DNA from: Frigoribacterium sp. PhB116
GTDB lineage: Bacteria; Actinomycetota; Actinomycetes; Actinomycetales; Microbacteriaceae
DNA: 64,000 nt
Assembly (NCBI RefSeq): GCF_004364285.1
Contig: NZ_SOBE01000001.1
Span: forward strand, 930,001-994,000
Direction: 5' to 3'
Under the pieces are notes generated by a model. The model saw nothing but the letters and a program-made list of their open reading frames with translations, did not search any database and was not told where the DNA came from. The position numbers were made by a program, and so were the translations under genes. Shown here piece after piece: positions 1,261 to 52,090 of the stretch (its first letter is position 1; the number at the start of each line of letters is the position of its first letter).

Positions 1261-1419
1261 CCCGCGCCGCCCCTCCTCGTTCAGCAACGTCGGTCCTGAT
1301 CCGCGCGACGGGGGGAGGCAGGGTCCTGGATCGTGCACGACTCAAGACCCGGTGCGCCCGAGTTCCTGAGTCCTGGCGACCTGGCCGGGCCCCGGGCCCC
1401 GGGCCCGGGTCGTCGCGCT
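1261..1419. other. Intergenic region with palindromes before the 29-bp repeat
   Basis: No gene is visible between the DUF58 stop and the 29-bp repeat array. The region holds the perfect 10-bp palindrome TCGTGCACGA at 1331-1340, three copies of GTCCTG (near 1292, 1323 and 1370), and ACTCA/TGAGT half-sites about 22 bases apart inside 1339-1371. Its purpose is unknown. Confidence 0.4.
1385..1408. terminator. GC hairpin, possible bidirectional terminator
   Basis: CCGGGCCC (1385-1392) pairs perfectly with GGGCCCGG (1401-1408) across an 8-base loop. It lies between two convergent genes, DUF58 and the SpoIIM-like gene, so it could end transcripts from either side. There is no T-tract, so intrinsic termination is only a guess. 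Confidence 0.35.
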
Positions 1420-1631
1420 CAGCCGGCACAGCGGCCTCCGCTCGCCGTCAGCCGGCACAGCGGCCCCCGCTCGCCGTCAGCCGGCACAGCGGCCCCCGCT
1501 CGCCGTCAGCCGGCACAGCAGACTCCGCTCGCCGTCAGCCGGCACAGCGGCCTCCGCTCGCCGTCAGCCGGCACAGCGGCCTCCACTCGCCGTCAGCCGG
1601 CACAGCAGCCTCCACTCGCCGTCAGCCGGCG
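1420..1631. repeat. 29-bp tandem repeat, 7 full copies plus a partial
   Basis: Seven head-to-tail units start at 1420, 1449, 1478, 1507, 1536, 1565 and 1594, and a partial unit begins at 1623. The unit starts CAGCCGGCACAGCGG and most copies contain the small inverted repeat AGCGG-N3-CCGCT. Copies 4, 6 and 7 have substitutions that weaken this stem. The period is not a multiple of three and no spacers separate the units, so it is neither coding nor a CRISPR. The partial unit carries the TGA stop of the adjacent minus-strand gene, which suggests the array grew by slippage from that gene's 3' end. Confidence 0.95.
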
Positions 1632-2617
1632 ACGAGCTCCGTCGCCCCGGCCTCGAACTCGTCGAGGTCGCCGGTCTGGCCGGCGCGGTGCGCGCGCCCG
1701 CCGAGAACCCACTGGTACGCGAGGAACCCGGCCAGGGCGACCGTGCCGATGCCGATCTTGATGGGCCACGGCCAGTCCTGGCGAGTGACGAACCCCTCGA
1801 TCACACCCGACACGAGCAGGGCCAGCATGAGCCCCACGGCGACGGTGACGAGCGCGCGGCCGTCCTGGGCGAGCGCCTGCCCCCGGGTGCGGGCGCCGGG
1901 GGCGACCCACGACCAGAAGATCATCAGCCCCGCACCGCCGGCGACGAAGATGCTGTACAGCTCGAGCTGGCCGTGCGGGAGGATGTACAGGAAGAAGTAC
2001 TCGAGGCGCCCCTGCTCGGCCATCAGGCCCGCCGAGATGCCCACGTTCATGGCGTTGTTCAGCACGACGTAGGGCACCCAGACGCCGGTGATCCCGAACG
2101 CGACGCACTGGGCGGCGATGAACGCGTTGTTCGTCCAGACCTGACCGGTGAACGACGAGGGCGCGCTCTCCGAGTAGTAGTTCACGAAGTCCTCGGTCGC
2201 GAACTGGCGACGGAACTCCTCCGAGCCGAACGACGCGAGCACCGCGGGTGACCCGGCCGCCCAGACCGCGAACGACGTCGCCACGACGACCGTGACGAGC
2301 AGCACCGCGATCGACAGCCAGCGAACCCGCCAGAGGGCGGCAGGCAGCTGGGCCACGAAGAAGGTCGGCACCTGCGAGGCGAGGTTCCGGCCGGCGCCCG
2401 TGAACCGGAGCCGCGCGCGCGACAGGGTCAGCGACAGCCTGTCGGCGACGACGGACGGGCCCGCGGCCGTCTGCAGCGCCGACAGCTCGGCAGCCCCCGA
2501 CTGGTACAGCCGGATCAGCTCGTCGGCCTCCGGGCCGGTGAGGCGCCGACGGCGCGCCAGGGCCTCGAGTTCGGTCCACTCGTGACCGTGGGCGGCGGCG
2601 TAGGCGTCGAGATCCAT
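1622..2617 (-). CDS. SpoIIM-family (stage II sporulation protein M-like) membrane protein
   Basis: A 331-aa protein with a soluble N-terminal 90 residues rich in Arg and Leu, followed by several transmembrane segments (around residues 105-125, 170-200, 215-240, 255-275 and 285-305). The loop FVNYYSESAPSSFTGQVWTN and the later ILPHGQLELYSIF segment are typical of the SpoIIM/DUF95 family. In non-sporulating actinobacteria this family pairs with RDD proteins and MoxR/DUF58 genes; its molecular job is not known. It is divergent from the RDD gene with only 18 bases between the two start codons. The last codons and stop lie in the edge of the 29-bp repeat. The ATG is preceded by a TAGTAT element 9 bases upstream, so the message may be leaderless. 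Confidence 0.85.
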   Translation of the reverse strand: MDLDAYAAAHGHEWTELEALARRRRLTGPEADELIRLYQSGAAELSALQTAAGPSVVADRLSLTLSRARLRFTGAGRNLASQVPTFFVAQLPAALWRVRWLSIAVLLVTVVVATSFAVWAAGSPAVLASFGSEEFRRQFATEDFVNYYSESAPSSFTGQVWTNNAFIAAQCVAFGITGVWVPYVVLNNAMNVGISAGLMAEQGRLEYFFLYILPHGQLELYSIFVAGGAGLMIFWSWVAPGARTRGQALAQDGRALVTVAVGLMLALLVSGVIEGFVTRQDWPWPIKIGIGTVALAGFLAYQWVLGGRAHRAGQTGDLDEFEAGATELVAG

Positions 2618-38510: not shown

Positions 38511-38555
38511 TGGTTGACTGATCACCGCCTGACGCCCCACCCGAGGAACCCACCC

Positions 38556-39497
38556 GTGAAGCTGTTCATCCAGATCCCCTGCCTCAACGAGGAGGAGACA
38601 CTCCCGTCCGTCCTCGAGAGCATCCCCACCTCCATCCCCGGGATCGACGAGATCCACGTCCTCGTCATCGACGACGGGTCGACGGACCGCACCGTCGAGG
38701 TCGCACGGGCCCACGGGGTCGAGCACGTCGTCCGCCACACGAGCAACATGGGCCTCGCGCGCTCGTTCCGTGACGGGGTCGACTACGCGCTGCTGCACGG
38801 TGCGGACATCGTCGTCAACACCGACGGGGACAACCAGTACCCCCAGTCGCAGATCACCGAGCTCGTCCAGCCCATCCTCGAGGGCAGGGCCGACATCGTC
38901 ATCGGCGACCGACAGACCCGCACCATCGAGCACTTCTCGAAGTTCAAGCGCACGATGCAGGGCCTCGGCAGCTGGGTGGCGAGCCGCGCCGCCGGTCTCG
39001 ACCTGCCCGACGCCGCCAGCGGCTTCCGCGCCTACTCGAAGTACTCGCTGATCCGCCTCAACATCGTCACGCGCTTCAGCTACTGCATGGAGACCATCGT
39101 GCAGGCGGGCTACAAGCGGCTCGCCCTCACCAGCATCCCCATCACGACCAACCCGAAGACCCGCGAGTCGCGGCTGTTCAGCAACATCTGGCAGCACATG
39201 TTCATGTCCGGCTCCGCCATCGTCCGCGTGTACCTGATGTACCGGCCGATGGCGCTCTTCGCGTGGATCAGCGCGGTCCTCCTCGCCGTCGGACTGGTGC
39301 CCTTCGTCCGCTACCTGGTGCTGCTGCAGGTCGACCCGGGCGGGGACCACCTGCAGTCGCTGCTCCTCGGCGTCCTGCTCGTCATCACCGCGTTGCTCTC
39401 CGTCGTGATCGGGGTGGTCGCCGATCTGACGAGGCTGAACAGGACCCTGGCCGAGGAACAGCTCGACCTCCTGAAGCTCCAGCGTTATGGCGACTGA
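38556..39497 (+). CDS. Membrane-anchored GT2 (polyprenyl-phosphate sugar synthase type)
   Basis: A 313-aa enzyme: QIPCLNEEETLPSVL, VIDDGSTDRTVEVA, VNTDGDNQYPQS as the DXD motif and DAASGFRAYSKYSLI. Two hydrophobic helices near residues 235-255 and 270-290 anchor it, and a charged tail follows. It is like dolichyl-phosphate glucose/mannose synthases and would supply a lipid-sugar donor for the two DUF2142-like genes that follow. GAGGAA lies 9 bases before the GTG 38556. The stop overlaps the next ATG by 11 bases. Confidence 0.85.
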   Translation: MKLFIQIPCLNEEETLPSVLESIPTSIPGIDEIHVLVIDDGSTDRTVEVARAHGVEHVVRHTSNMGLARSFRDGVDYALLHGADIVVNTDGDNQYPQSQITELVQPILEGRADIVIGDRQTRTIEHFSKFKRTMQGLGSWVASRAAGLDLPDAASGFRAYSKYSLIRLNIVTRFSYCMETIVQAGYKRLALTSIPITTNPKTRESRLFSNIWQHMFMSGSAIVRVYLMYRPMALFAWISAVLLAVGLVPFVRYLVLLQVDPGGDHLQSLLLGVLLVITALLSVVIGVVADLTRLNRTLAEEQLDLLKLQRYGD

Positions 39498-41025
39498 GAC
39501 AATCTCCGTACCTCAGGTCACCCGGTCGGAGTGGGCGATCCTCTCCTGCGTCACCGCGGCCTTCACTGTGGCCCTCACGCTCTGGGCCCTGCTCACGCCG
39601 ATGTTCCAGGCGCCCGACGAGGTCGTCCACTTCGACGCCGCGGTCCGCGTCGCCGAGGGCGACGGCTGGCCTGCCCCGGGCGAGGCCCTGTTCCGTGCCG
39701 CCTCGCTCGCCGCGCAGGACTCGATCACCACCGTGCCCACGGAAGACCGGTCGAGCTGGGCCGACCTCGAGGCGGCGCACCCCGGGACGACGACCGACGT
39801 CAACCAGATGACGCAGCACCCGCCGACCTACTACCTCCTCGCGGGCGCCGTCCTCGACGCCGTCGACTTCACCCAGCACCGCTGGGACGCCGGAGTCCTC
39901 GCCCTCCGCCTCCTCGACGTCGTCCTCGTCGCCCCGCTCCCCCTCCTCACCTGGGCCACCGTCCGACGCCTCACCCGCTCCCCCCGCACCGCCCTCGTCG
40001 CCGCCACCGCCCTCTTCGCCGTCCCCCAGCTCGCCCAGATCGGCGCCTCCGTCACCAACGACGCCCCCGTGATCCTGCTCGGCGGCGTGGTCGTCTGGCT
40101 CACCACCCGCGTCCTCACCGGCGACCGCACCTGGCGCACCACCCTCCTCCTCGGCGCCGCCCTCGGCCTCATGCTCGCCGTCAAGGGCACCGCCTTCCCC
40201 GCCGTCCCCTTCGTCGCCCTCGCCGTCCTCCTCGGAGGCGCCAGCACCGTCCCCCTCCGCACCCGCCTCCTGCAGACCCTCGGCACCGGCGCCGTCACCG
40301 CCGCCCTCGGCGCCTGGTGGTGGATCGGCAACCTCGTCCGCTACGGCACCCTCCAGCCCAACGGGCTCCCGAGGTCGTTCACCCCCGTCCCGTGGCCGGA
40401 AGGCGAGGGCCCGAACGCGGGCGCGTTCGTGAACACCGAGTGGAACCGCCTCTCAGCGTCGTTCTGGGGCCAGTTCGGCCGCCTCGAGTTCGCCATGACG
40501 CCGATCCTCACCGACCTGCTGACGGTCTCGTGCCTCCTGTTCGTGGTGTGGTCCGCGTTCCGTCCCGGCCCTCGTCGGCGCATCGCCTGGGTGCTCGCGT
40601 CCTTCCCCCTCCTCACCCTCCTCGTGCTGCTCCAGAACAACTGGTCCTCGTACGAGCGCACCCAGGAGATCTCCGGCGCGCAGGGCCGCTACTTCTTCGG
40701 AGCGCTCGTCGCGCTGGTGGCCCTCGCCGCCCTCGGCGCCCTGACCGCGATCGACTCCCCCGTGACGAGGAGGCGGCTCGCCCGTGTGGTCCTCGTCGCC
40801 TCCCCCGTCATCGGCGTCTACGGCTTCTCCGTCGCGTACCGCGGGTTCTTCGAGGGGACGGACCTCGAGATCACCGGCCCCGGCGTCTCGAACCTGCTCG
40901 TGACGACCCCTGCCGGCGGCGGCGTCTTCACCGTCCTCGTCGTCCTGCTCGCCGTGACGGCCCTCGCGGCCGTCGTCGGCACGTGGCGGACGCTCTCCCC
41001 CGTCGGGAAGGAACCCCGTGCCTGA
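39487..41025 (+). CDS. DUF2142-like polytopic membrane protein 1
   Basis: A 512-aa protein with about 11-12 membrane segments. The first extracytoplasmic loop has TPMFQAPDEVVHFDAAVRV, and the next has MTQHPPTYYLLAG; such acidic and His residues are characteristic of GT-C-fold enzymes that use polyprenyl-phosphate sugars. It forms a tandem pair with the next gene, and the two align without gaps from their start codons. Residues 105-294 are encoded by a 571-bp tract identical in both genes, with third positions overwhelmingly C, unlike the flanks. Confidence 0.75.
   Translation: MATETISVPQVTRSEWAILSCVTAAFTVALTLWALLTPMFQAPDEVVHFDAAVRVAEGDGWPAPGEALFRAASLAAQDSITTVPTEDRSSWADLEAAHPGTTTDVNQMTQHPPTYYLLAGAVLDAVDFTQHRWDAGVLALRLLDVVLVAPLPLLTWATVRRLTRSPRTALVAATALFAVPQLAQIGASVTNDAPVILLGGVVVWLTTRVLTGDRTWRTTLLLGAALGLMLAVKGTAFPAVPFVALAVLLGGASTVPLRTRLLQTLGTGAVTAALGAWWWIGNLVRYGTLQPNGLPRSFTPVPWPEGEGPNAGAFVNTEWNRLSASFWGQFGRLEFAMTPILTDLLTVSCLLFVVWSAFRPGPRRRIAWVLASFPLLTLLVLLQNNWSSYERTQEISGAQGRYFFGALVALVALAALGALTAIDSPVTRRRLARVVLVASPVIGVYGFSVAYRGFFEGTDLEITGPGVSNLLVTTPAGGGVFTVLVVLLAVTALAAVVGTWRTLSPVGKEPRA
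39798..40368 (+). repeat. 571-bp exact direct repeat, copy 1
   Basis: Compared base by base with 41329-41899, it is identical throughout, at a constant offset of 1531 bases. The matching stops at both ends with single mismatches followed by strong divergence. It lies wholly inside the first DUF2142-like gene. Confidence 0.97.
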
Positions 41026-42601
41026 GACCTCGTCGACGCCTCCGCCCGTGCGGCGCCGGGAGGCGGTGTCCGTCGCGGTGGTCACCGCTGCCTTCGGCCT
41101 GTTGCTGACCCTGTGGGCCGTCATGACCCCGATGTTCCAGGCACCGGACGAGTTCACCCACTGGGACGCCAGCGTCCGGGTCGCGCTCGACGAGGGCTGG
41201 CCCCCTCCCGGTGAGGCCCTGAACATCGCGGCGGCCCAGGCCGCCCAGGTGACGAACTTCACGATCCCGCCGGCGGAACGGCCGACCTTCGGGGCCCTGC
41301 AGGAGCAGGCGCCGGGGTACCACGACTTCGTCAACCAGATGACGCAGCACCCGCCGACCTACTACCTCCTCGCGGGCGCCGTCCTCGACGCCGTCGACTT
41401 CACCCAGCACCGCTGGGACGCCGGAGTCCTCGCCCTCCGCCTCCTCGACGTCGTCCTCGTCGCCCCGCTCCCCCTCCTCACCTGGGCCACCGTCCGACGC
41501 CTCACCCGCTCCCCCCGCACCGCCCTCGTCGCCGCCACCGCCCTCTTCGCCGTCCCCCAGCTCGCCCAGATCGGCGCCTCCGTCACCAACGACGCCCCCG
41601 TGATCCTGCTCGGCGGCGTGGTCGTCTGGCTCACCACCCGCGTCCTCACCGGCGACCGCACCTGGCGCACCACCCTCCTCCTCGGCGCCGCCCTCGGCCT
41701 CATGCTCGCCGTCAAGGGCACCGCCTTCCCCGCCGTCCCCTTCGTCGCCCTCGCCGTCCTCCTCGGAGGCGCCAGCACCGTCCCCCTCCGCACCCGCCTC
41801 CTGCAGACCCTCGGCACCGGCGCCGTCACCGCCGCCCTCGGCGCCTGGTGGTGGATCGGCAACCTCGTCCGCTACGGCACCCTCCAGCCCAACGGGCTCG
41901 CGGACGAACGCCCCCCGGCGCCGTGGCCCGCCGGCGAGGGCCCGAACGCCGGGCTCTTCTTCAACACGTTCTGGGACGGGGTGACGTCGTCCTTCTGGGG
42001 CCAGTTCGGCCGGGCCCAGTACCCGGTCAGCCCCGTCGTCAGCGACGTCCTGACGGTCGGCGCGCTGCTGCTGGTCGGCGTGTTCGCCTACCGTGCCCGC
42101 GGCACGCGCCGTGCCGCGCTGCTCCTGACCGTGCTCCCCGTGGTCATCGCCGTGGTGATGCTCGCCAACGGCTGGAACACCTACGACGAGACACAAGGCG
42201 TCTACGGCACGCAGGGGCGCTACTTCTACCCCTCGCTCGTCGCCCTGGTCGCCCTCTCCGCGATCGCGGCGACAGCGCTGCTCGCGCCGGGCGCACCACG
42301 TCGCCGTGCGGCCGTCGCCGTCGCCGTGGGCGCCCCCCTGCTCGCCCTCTACGGCCTCTCGGTGGCCTACCGCGGGTTCTTCGAGGGCTTCGACCTCGCC
42401 GTCACCGAGCAGGGTCTGCGCGAGCTCGCAGGTTCGCTGCCCGTGGGGAGGCCGGAGTTCGTCGTGCTCGCGCTGGCGACGCTCGCAGGCCTCGTCGCCG
42501 TCGCCGTGCTGACGGCGCGGGTCCGCGACCGCCCGGAGCTCACGACCGACGACGCCGCAGTGCCTCCTGCACGCCCCGTCGAGACGAGCCGCCAGCCATG
42601 A
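41018..42601 (+). CDS. DUF2142-like polytopic membrane protein 2
   Basis: A 527-aa paralogue with the same design: TPMFQAPDEFTHWDASVRV then MTQHPPTYYLLAG. The GTG start follows GGGAAGGAA and overlaps the stop of copy 1. Outside the shared tract the two proteins are clearly related but much changed, so they likely act on different substrates. Its 3' end overlaps the convergent GT4 gene by 62 bases. Confidence 0.75.
   Translation: MPETSSTPPPVRRREAVSVAVVTAAFGLLLTLWAVMTPMFQAPDEFTHWDASVRVALDEGWPPPGEALNIAAAQAAQVTNFTIPPAERPTFGALQEQAPGYHDFVNQMTQHPPTYYLLAGAVLDAVDFTQHRWDAGVLALRLLDVVLVAPLPLLTWATVRRLTRSPRTALVAATALFAVPQLAQIGASVTNDAPVILLGGVVVWLTTRVLTGDRTWRTTLLLGAALGLMLAVKGTAFPAVPFVALAVLLGGASTVPLRTRLLQTLGTGAVTAALGAWWWIGNLVRYGTLQPNGLADERPPAPWPAGEGPNAGLFFNTFWDGVTSSFWGQFGRAQYPVSPVVSDVLTVGALLLVGVFAYRARGTRRAALLLTVLPVVIAVVMLANGWNTYDETQGVYGTQGRYFYPSLVALVALSAIAATALLAPGAPRRRAAVAVAVGAPLLALYGLSVAYRGFFEGFDLAVTEQGLRELAGSLPVGRPEFVVLALATLAGLVAVAVLTARVRDRPELTTDDAAVPPARPVETSRQP
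41329..41899 (+). repeat. 571-bp exact direct repeat, copy 2
   Basis: The second copy of the tract at 39798-40368, in the same frame of the second gene. See that entry. Confidence 0.97.
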
Positions 42602-51103: not shown

Positions 51104-52090
51104 GTGAAAATCCTCGTCACCGGCGGAGCCGGCTTCATCGGCTCCAACTTCGTCCGCCGCACCCTCGAAGACGCCTACCCGGGCCTGGAGGGAGCCGAGG
51201 TCGTCGTGCTGGACGCCCTGACGTACTCCGGCAACCTCGAGAACCTCATCTCGGTCGCCGAGTCGCCCCGGTTCCGCTTCGTCCAGGGCGACATCCGCGA
51301 CGGCGCCCTGCTCGACACCCTCTTCCCCGAGGTCGACGCCGTCGTCCACTTCGCGGCGGAGTCGCACGTCGACCGCTCGGTCCGCGACGCGTCGATCTTC
51401 ATCGAGACCAACGTGCTCGGCACGCAGCAGCTGCTCGACGCCGCGCTGCGCAACGACCTGAAGCGGTTCGTGCACGTCTCGACCGACGAGGTCTACGGCT
51501 CCATCGTCGAGGGCTCCTGGGCCGAGGACCGCCCGCTCGAGCCGAACTCCCCCTACTCCGCGTCGAAGGCCGGCAGCGACCTGCTCGCCCGCAGCTACCA
51601 CCGCACGCACGGCCTGAACATCTCGATCACGCGCTGCAGCAACAACTACGGCCCGTACCACTTCCCCGAGAAGGTCATCCCGCTCTTCGTCACCAACCTC
51701 ATCGACGACGTGCACGTCCCCCTCTACGGCGAGGGGAACAACATCCGCGACTGGCTGCACGTCGACGACCACACCCGCGGCATCGCGATGGTCCTCGTCG
51801 GCGGCCGCCCCGGCGAGATCTACAACATCGGCGGCGGCACCGAGCTCACCAACAAAGAACTGACCGAGATGCTGCTCGAGGCCACCGGCAAGGACTGGTC
51901 GTACGTCGACCGCGTGCAGGACCGCCTCGGCCATGACCTCCGCTACTCGGTCGACATCTCGAAGATCCGCTCCGAGCTCGGCTACGAGCCCCAGGTGCCC
52001 TTCGCCGAGGGACTCGCCGAGGTGGTGCAGTGGTACCGCGACAACCGCCAGTGGTGGGAGCCCCTCAAGGAGCGCGCGGCACTCGCATGA
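51104..52090 (+). CDS. rfbB: dTDP-glucose 4,6-dehydratase
   Basis: A 328-aa SDR enzyme acting on dTDP-glucose. GGAGFIGSNFVRR binds NAD, VHVSTDEVYGS contains the catalytic Thr/Asp/Glu set, and YSASKAGSDLL has the Tyr-x3-Lys. NNYGPYHFPEKVIPLFV is the family loop. GTG start with AAGGA upstream. It overlaps rfbD by 4 bases and continues into a GT4, one operon on the plus strand. Confidence 0.96.
   Translation: MKILVTGGAGFIGSNFVRRTLEDAYPGLEGAEVVVLDALTYSGNLENLISVAESPRFRFVQGDIRDGALLDTLFPEVDAVVHFAAESHVDRSVRDASIFIETNVLGTQQLLDAALRNDLKRFVHVSTDEVYGSIVEGSWAEDRPLEPNSPYSASKAGSDLLARSYHRTHGLNISITRCSNNYGPYHFPEKVIPLFVTNLIDDVHVPLYGEGNNIRDWLHVDDHTRGIAMVLVGGRPGEIYNIGGGTELTNKELTEMLLEATGKDWSYVDRVQDRLGHDLRYSVDISKIRSELGYEPQVPFAEGLAEVVQWYRDNRQWWEPLKERAALA

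What the first reader, a model, noticed from the sequence alone, without database searches (positions are those of the whole stretch)
39798..41899. 571-bp perfectly identical tract shared by two divergent tandem DUF2142-like genes
Line-by-line comparison shows 39798-40368 and 41329-41899 are identical over all 571 bases at an offset of 1531. The start codons are separated by exactly the same offset, so the genes align without gaps, yet sequence on either side has diverged strongly. Third codon positions in the tract are nearly all C, unlike the mixed C/G of the flanks. This suggests a recent gene conversion, possibly with a third donor sequence. The tract covers part of the membrane core right after the acidic loop.
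Basis: seen in the sequence. Interest (0 to 1): 0.7.

Follow-up and report, generated by a model that had tools for sequence, protein, structure and literature searches.

The report
Skewed gene-conversion tract in twin genes
Two neighbouring sugar-transferase-like genes keep copying one shared middle piece between each other, and that piece has been rewritten in A and C at the expense of G and T, possibly because the cell's unusual mismatch-repair enzyme lets only some changes through; this suggests a testable origin for a known but unexplained kind of bacterial repeat.

Summary
It is not one recent event. In a second Frigoribacterium (PhB160) the orthologous pair shares the same tract, 567/567 bp, borders matching to within one base, yet the two species' tracts differ by 13%. 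Flanks group by gene, tracts by genome: recurrent concerted evolution. Twelve pairs in other genera are not homogenised and lack the C bias. The bias is not codon preference: A and C rise, G and T fall at all codon positions. It resembles GRINS, skewed repeats of polyketide synthases. In actinobacterial (NucS) repeats GC and TA skew move together, 61 of 61 segments; in MutS-type taxa 0 of 7. NucS repairs exactly keto:keto mismatches on strands annealed to the lagging template (papers). Majority polarity follows replication direction at 8 of 8 loci, two ORFs excepted; the window fits a prediction written beforehand. I propose NucS-filtered, lagging-strand-directed gene conversion: correlative, unproven.

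The parts
39487..41025 (+). gene A, 512 aa, DUF2142 / PMT_2 (GT-C-like membrane protein)
41018..42601 (+). gene B, 527 aa, DUF2142 / PMT_2; its start overlaps the end of gene A
39798..40368 (+). homogenised tract, copy in gene A (whole codons: residues 105-294)
41329..41899 (+). homogenised tract, copy in gene B
39798..39843 (+). 5' edge of the tract, identical between copies but without the C bias (C at 4 of 8 four-fold sites); same edge in copy B
   Evidence: 15-codon bins
38514..39497 (+). upstream glycosyltransferase family 2 ORF, same direction (context only)
51104..52087 (+). rmlB-like gene in the same orientation as A/B, used as the syntenic marker for replication direction (name from similarity as recalled, not from a family search)

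Best explanation
The tract is a GRINS-like concerted-evolution element. Shown: A and B are a tandem pair older than the split of the two Frigoribacterium species; their cores are homogenised again and again while the flanks stay diverged; the core carries a DNA-level strand skew (A and C up, G and T down on the coding strand) that also changes the protein. Inferred mechanism: during replication a single strand of one copy anneals to the exposed lagging-strand template of the other. NucS, the mismatch-repair enzyme of these genomes, repairs mismatches in which an incoming G or T faces a G or T, over a patch of a few bases and back to the resident sequence, but ignores mismatches of incoming A or C facing A or C. 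So on the annealing (nascent lagging) strand an A or C can replace a G or T, but hardly the reverse. Repeated exchange homogenises the copies and ratchets that strand towards A+C. In this head-on pair that strand is the coding strand; in co-directional genes the coding strand becomes G+T rich.
For: Same tract in PhB160, 567/567 bp, other sequence; flank and tract trees disagree as conversion predicts. A+C at codon positions 1+2: 0.495 and 0.545 against 0.414-0.468 in 30 homologues, flanks normal; Thr 22 and 29 against 12.7 +- 2.3, Val 23 and 14 against 28.9 +- 5.0. NucS_C found in 9 of 9 and MutS_V in 0 of 9 genomes used, controls as expected. In homogenised PKS repeats of NucS genomes G>C, T>A, G>A and T>C all shift in the direction of the skew (0.59, 0.68, 0.42, 0.71) and G>T, A>C do not (-0.10, -0.13); 61 of 61 segments with |GC|>=0.2 have same-sign TA skew. 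MutS-type taxa: 0 of 7, with G>C 0.46 but T>A -0.10, T>C 0.09, G>A 0.22. That contrast was written down before the tests. Same-sign segments occur at 9 of 11 loci against 0 of 9, or 5 of 7 genomes against 0 of 8 (p=0.007). In vivo NucS repairs G-G, G-T and T-T made by oligonucleotides on the lagging template, with a short patch (PMC11551744, results part 1 of 3; PMC11551767, passages). Majority polarity fits fork direction at 8 of 8 loci; window predicted head-on, found so by synteny.
Against: No experiment. ORFs G448b_+49795 (3 amino segments, co-directional) and G616a_-19982 (GC only, co-directional) break the polarity rule; G627 fits only if its chromosome is circular. The sign of ordinary leading-strand skew is the same (recalled). 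The window tract's raw TA skew is +0.17 and PhB160's +0.02, against GC -0.36 and -0.42: only the shift relative to homologues is concordant. Two-fold purine codons show no A excess (G 8, A 0 in the window; G 6, A 1 in PhB160). The 5' edge is unskewed, and many homogenised segments in NucS genomes are weakly skewed or unskewed (28 of 89 have |GC|<0.2). The MutS set is mostly NRPS, the NucS set PKS, and taxa differ in more than NucS. Rhizobium 007 leans the NucS way weakly (T>A -39 of 81, G>C -124 of 612). PMC12999951 holds that NucS repair cannot a priori be strand-specific (passage).
Confidence: 0.55

Rival explanations
1. Recurrent conversion, but the keto/amino skew comes from another strand-asymmetric step, such as a RecA pairing preference for G/T-rich strands or replication-linked mutation, not from NucS.
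For: Polarity also agrees with ordinary leading-strand keto skew; RecA preference for G/T-rich DNA is recalled, not looked up. NucS has not been manipulated here.
Against: RecA occurs in MutS taxa too (recalled), yet their homogenised repeats show no same-sign skew: 0 of 75 segments, 169 kb. Non-homogenised PKS windows in the same NucS genomes have near-zero mean skew (383 windows, GC -0.019, TA 0.048), so replication alone does not do it.
Confidence: 0.27
2. Recurrent conversion plus selection on codons or mRNA (translation speed, weak structure, a Rho site) makes the core C-rich.
For: The bias is strongest at third positions (C 137 of 150 four-fold sites); C-rich, G-poor RNA is typical of Rho sites (recalled).
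Against: Crude gene calls in an 18-kb ribosomal-protein stretch average 0.58 C at four-fold sites (single.22-0.75). Positions 1+2 and the amino acids shift as well. Homologues in other genera show none of it.
Confidence: 0.09
3. One recent conversion, possibly from a third donor with other codon use.
For: Perfect identity within the window genome.
Against: PhB160 shows the same tract and nearly the same borders with another sequence; no donor in the searches made.
Confidence: 0.04
4. Assembly artefact: two similar cores collapsed into one sequence.
For: No reads were available; both assemblies are drafts in several contigs.
Against: Two genomes show it with different sequences and different offsets, 1531 and 1598. 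Collapse could hide a few differences, not create identity between genes 58% alike.
Confidence: 0.02

Closest known systems
[quoted passage not shown] 2021, not held, recalled; passages about it seen in PMC9899208, PMC10394414, PMC11907408)
   Same: Near-identical repeat of more than 500 bp inside one cluster, strong GC skew, link to gene conversion, recoded protein; actinobacterial host.
   Different: Lies in a tandem pair of ~520-codon membrane-protein genes, not an assembly-line PKS; raw TA skew is weak or of the opposite sign to GC; borders are kept in two species. That GRINS also occur in other gene families is recalled from the abstract, not seen.
Concerted evolution of paralogues by gene conversion
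   Same: Copies more alike within a genome than between species, flanks diverged.
   Different: Strong one-strand base skew confined to the homogenised part.
GC-biased gene conversion
   Same: Base composition changed by biased repair during exchange.
   Different: Here the axis is keto to amino on one strand (G>C and T>A included), not weak to strong base pairs.
DUF2142 (PF09913) and PMT_2 (PF13231) membrane proteins
   Same: Both proteins pass the cut-offs of both families.
   Different: A homogenised core between divergent flanks was seen only in the two Frigoribacterium genomes; 0 of 12 within-genome pairs in other genera.

Membership tests
GRINS | Repeat of at least 500 bp with more than 80% DNA identity within the cluster (criterion as given in PMC9899208) | tested here: met
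   571/571 bp in the window, 567/567 in PhB160
GRINS | Mean |GC skew| over 150/30-nt windows above 0.15 | tested here: met
   0.379 window, 0.438 PhB160; flanks 0.044-0.140
GRINS | Mean |TA skew| above 0.15 | tested here: inconclusive
   0.249 in the window, 0.121 in PhB160; several flanks reach 0.17-0.38 too, and the raw sign is opposite to GC. Relative to 30 homologues T>A and T>C shift with G>C
GRINS | Located in an assembly-line PKS | tested here: not met
   Genes are DUF2142/PMT_2; wider occurrence of GRINS is recalled only, so I file the tract as GRINS-like
GRINS | Association with gene conversion | tested here: met
   Conflicting flank and tract trees
DUF2142 / GT-C-like | Profile match above Pfam's gathering cut-off | tested here: met
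   DUF2142 56.9 and 55.7 bits (cut-off 30.1), PMT_2 49.5 and 49.4 (cut-off 26.1)
DUF2142 / GT-C-like | Three-dimensional GT-C fold | not testable with these tools
DUF2142 / GT-C-like | Glycosyltransferase activity | not testable with these tools
   Needs an experiment

The most novel reading that the evidence does not exclude
[quoted passage not shown] MutS organisms leave a different, G/C-only footprint.
Probability: 0.48. Interest if true: 0.92.

Novelty: new member of a known kind. Interest (0 to 1): 0.75.

Why it matters
It adds a clear GRINS-like element in small membrane-protein genes, with borders kept in two species. It also turns the question of how GRINS arise (unknown as of the 2021 paper, recalled) into sharp predictions: a defined enzyme (NucS), defined mismatch classes, and a polarity set by the replication fork. 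If right, the blind spots of a repair enzyme reshape protein sequence in repeated genes, antibiotic assembly lines included.

Tried and rejected
Translational selection: a ribosomal-protein stretch averages 0.58 C at four-fold sites against 0.91 in the tract. Third donor: none found in the searches made. Replication direction from the genome's own four-fold skew: no usable signal, so dnaA positions were used. An NRPS query from Sandaracinus found only its own species; a cyanobacterial query worked. Of 18 MutS-type loci examined, 9 had no homogenised segment. Earlier PKS counts included false repeats where neighbouring ORFs overlap. One search drops them, and with them some true tandem repeats (S. 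akebiae loses its skewed segments), and its numbers are the ones to use. Segments that are copies of each other are counted separately, so the per-locus and per-genome counts are safer. The MutS set includes two loci each of Eleftheria and of Nostoc UHCC 0926, and RHS-type repeats beside the Eleftheria PKS passed the segment filter. I chose the loci by hand from search lists, leaving pathogens out. NucS was not tested in the three Streptomyces plasmid hosts, nor MutS in the plasmid hosts; mutS and mutL are annotated beside the Bacillus locus, and the family controls are.

Full report
OBSERVATION. The 571-bp identity is exact and sharply bounded. Genes A (39487-41025) and B (41018-42601) match DUF2142 and PMT_2. 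The window is G000:C1:930001-994000.

RECURRENT CONVERSION. PhB160 carries the orthologous tandem pair. Its copies share 567 of 567 bp over the same stretch at an offset of 1598; the 5' border is at the same base, the 3' border one base earlier. Between the species the tract is 87% identical in DNA and 81% in protein; orthologous flanks are 64-71% in DNA. In maximum-likelihood trees of 15 of the 34 sequences the flanks give A+A' (97/95) and B+B' (100/99), whereas the tract proteins of each genome are identical. Twelve within-genome pairs of Curtobacterium and Frondihabitans (10 loci) have at most 60% protein identity in the tract and no C-rich island. Of 16 genomes held for the genus, 2 have the tract.

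NATURE OF THE BIAS. At four-fold sites C is 137 of 150, against 0.553 over the sampled genome and 0.58 in a ribosomal-protein stretch. In 0.90 Mb of G000 and 0.46 Mb of G004 the next gene calls reach 0.82 and 0.84 per 100 sites, against 0.95 and 0.94 (the crude caller did not list B' of PhB160). Against 30 homologues the tract gains A+C at codon positions 1+2 (0.495 and 0.545; others 0.414-0.468) and 3 (0.856 and 0.872; others 0.492-0.604); the flanks lie inside the others' range. Relative to the homologues the net changes in the window tract are G>C 0.55, T>A 0.74, G>A 0.26, T>C 0.42, while within-class changes are G>T -0.29 and A>C 0.16; in PhB160 0.65, 0.82, 0.43, 0.58, -0.17, -0.13. So the process acts on DNA, not on codons.

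LINK TO GRINS. GRINS are near-identical repeats with intense GC and TA skew in polyketide synthases, tied to gene conversion and commonest in actinobacteria (passages of PMC9899208, PMC10394414, PMC11907408; the original paper is not held). The window tract meets the length, identity and GC-skew criteria. TA skew passes in the window and fails in PhB160, and its raw sign is opposite to GC, because these membrane proteins start from T>A. I file it as GRINS-like.

MECHANISM TEST. NucS prefers G-T, G-G and T-T mismatches (PMC8228993, passages), the three keto:keto pairs. In M. smegmatis, oligonucleotides on the lagging-strand template are rejected where they make G-G or G-T, and accepted at C-C, A-A, A-C, C-A, G-A and A-G, with repair confined to about 5-6 bp (PMC11551744, abstract and results part 1 of 3); PMC11551767 reports repair of G-G, G-T and T-T in vivo with limited resection (passages). 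An annealing strand can thus put A or C in place of G or T but not the reverse. I noted before testing that NucS organisms should show GC and TA skew together and MutS organisms (weak on C-C, recalled) GC alone. Result on homogenised segments (>=97%, >=250 bp). NucS group, 20 loci examined, 11 with segments: 89 segments, r=0.92 between GC and TA skew, 59 of 59 with both >=0.15 and 61 of 61 with |GC|>=0.2 of the same sign. MutS-type group, 18 loci examined, 9 with segments: 75 segments (169 kb), r=0.04, none with both >=0.15, and 0 of 7 with |GC|>=0.2 of the same sign. Loci with a same-sign segment: 9 of 11 against 0 of 9 (p=3e-4); genomes 5 of 7 against 0 of 8 (p=0.007). NucS_C in 9 of 9 and MutS_V in 0 of 9 of the genomes searched. 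In Eleftheria terrae the PKS repeats have GC +0.22 to +0.24 with TA -0.03, and the NRPS repeats GC -0.14 to -0.21 with TA -0.03 to +0.09. Rhizobium 007 leans weakly the NucS way (T>A -39 of 81, G>C -124 of 612; skews 0.09 and 0.12) and is the nearest thing to a counterexample.

POLARITY. If the annealing strand is the nascent lagging strand, co-directional genes should become keto-rich and head-on genes amino-rich on the coding strand. I formed this after seeing the PKS polarities, so the sign is fitted there. With dnaA positions the majority polarity fits at G448a, b, c, G551b, G616a, b, G627a and c, 8 of 8 (G627 only if circular). ORFs G448b_+49795 and G616a_-19982 do not fit. For the window I wrote 'head-on' before looking. 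The rmlB-like gene 51104-52087, same orientation and about 10 kb away, lies about 1.15-1.16 Mb from dnaA and head-on in both one-contig congeners G008 and G015; A/B have the same orientation relative to it in G004. This rests on synteny, because dnaA of G000 is on another contig.

LIMITS. The mechanism is inferred by comparison. The MutS set is mostly NRPS and the NucS set PKS; loci were picked by hand from search lists; taxa differ in more than NucS. Polarity also agrees with ordinary leading-strand skew (recalled). The unskewed 5' edge, the unskewed homogenised segments and the purine two-fold codons (G 8, A 0) are not explained. Literature: GRINS + polyketide + mismatch repair, 0 papers; gene conversion + NucS + biased, 5 papers listed, passages of two read; nucleotide skews + PKS + gene conversion, 2 papers; two of EndoMS / nucleotide skew / strand asymmetry / gene conversion, 126 papers, 10 listed, passages of one of them read on this point. 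None of what I saw states this link, but the original GRINS paper was not available. PMC12999951 argues that NucS repair cannot a priori be strand-specific; PMC13061034 reads a T>C excess in paralogous regions as reduced NucS repair. What A and B do beyond family membership is untested.

Noticed in passing
window 1384-1659: Array of 29-bp direct repeats, about 93% alike in its centre.
   Followed up: no
L119 2696-4831 (-), G000:C2 near 702700-704800: Next most C-biased gene stretch of the sampled genome (0.827 C over 150 four-fold sites) without any exact repeat of 60 bp or more in its 20-kb stretch.
   Followed up: no
L187, L188, L191, L192: Rhizobial and Methylocystis NRPS genes with 21-46 kb of homogenised modules per 50-kb stretch and almost no base skew.
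   Followed up: partly
L175 and L180 joined, and L193: Eleftheria terrae PKS and NRPS repeats with G/C-only skew of opposite sign in the two clusters: a possible MutS-type counterpart of GRINS.
   Followed up: partly
L029 149-6575: A Curtobacterium locus with three DUF2142 paralogues in a row, none homogenised: a natural comparison for why Frigoribacterium converts.
   Followed up: partly
window 41018-41025: The start of gene B overlaps the end of gene A by 8 bases, which suggests translational coupling.
   Followed up: no
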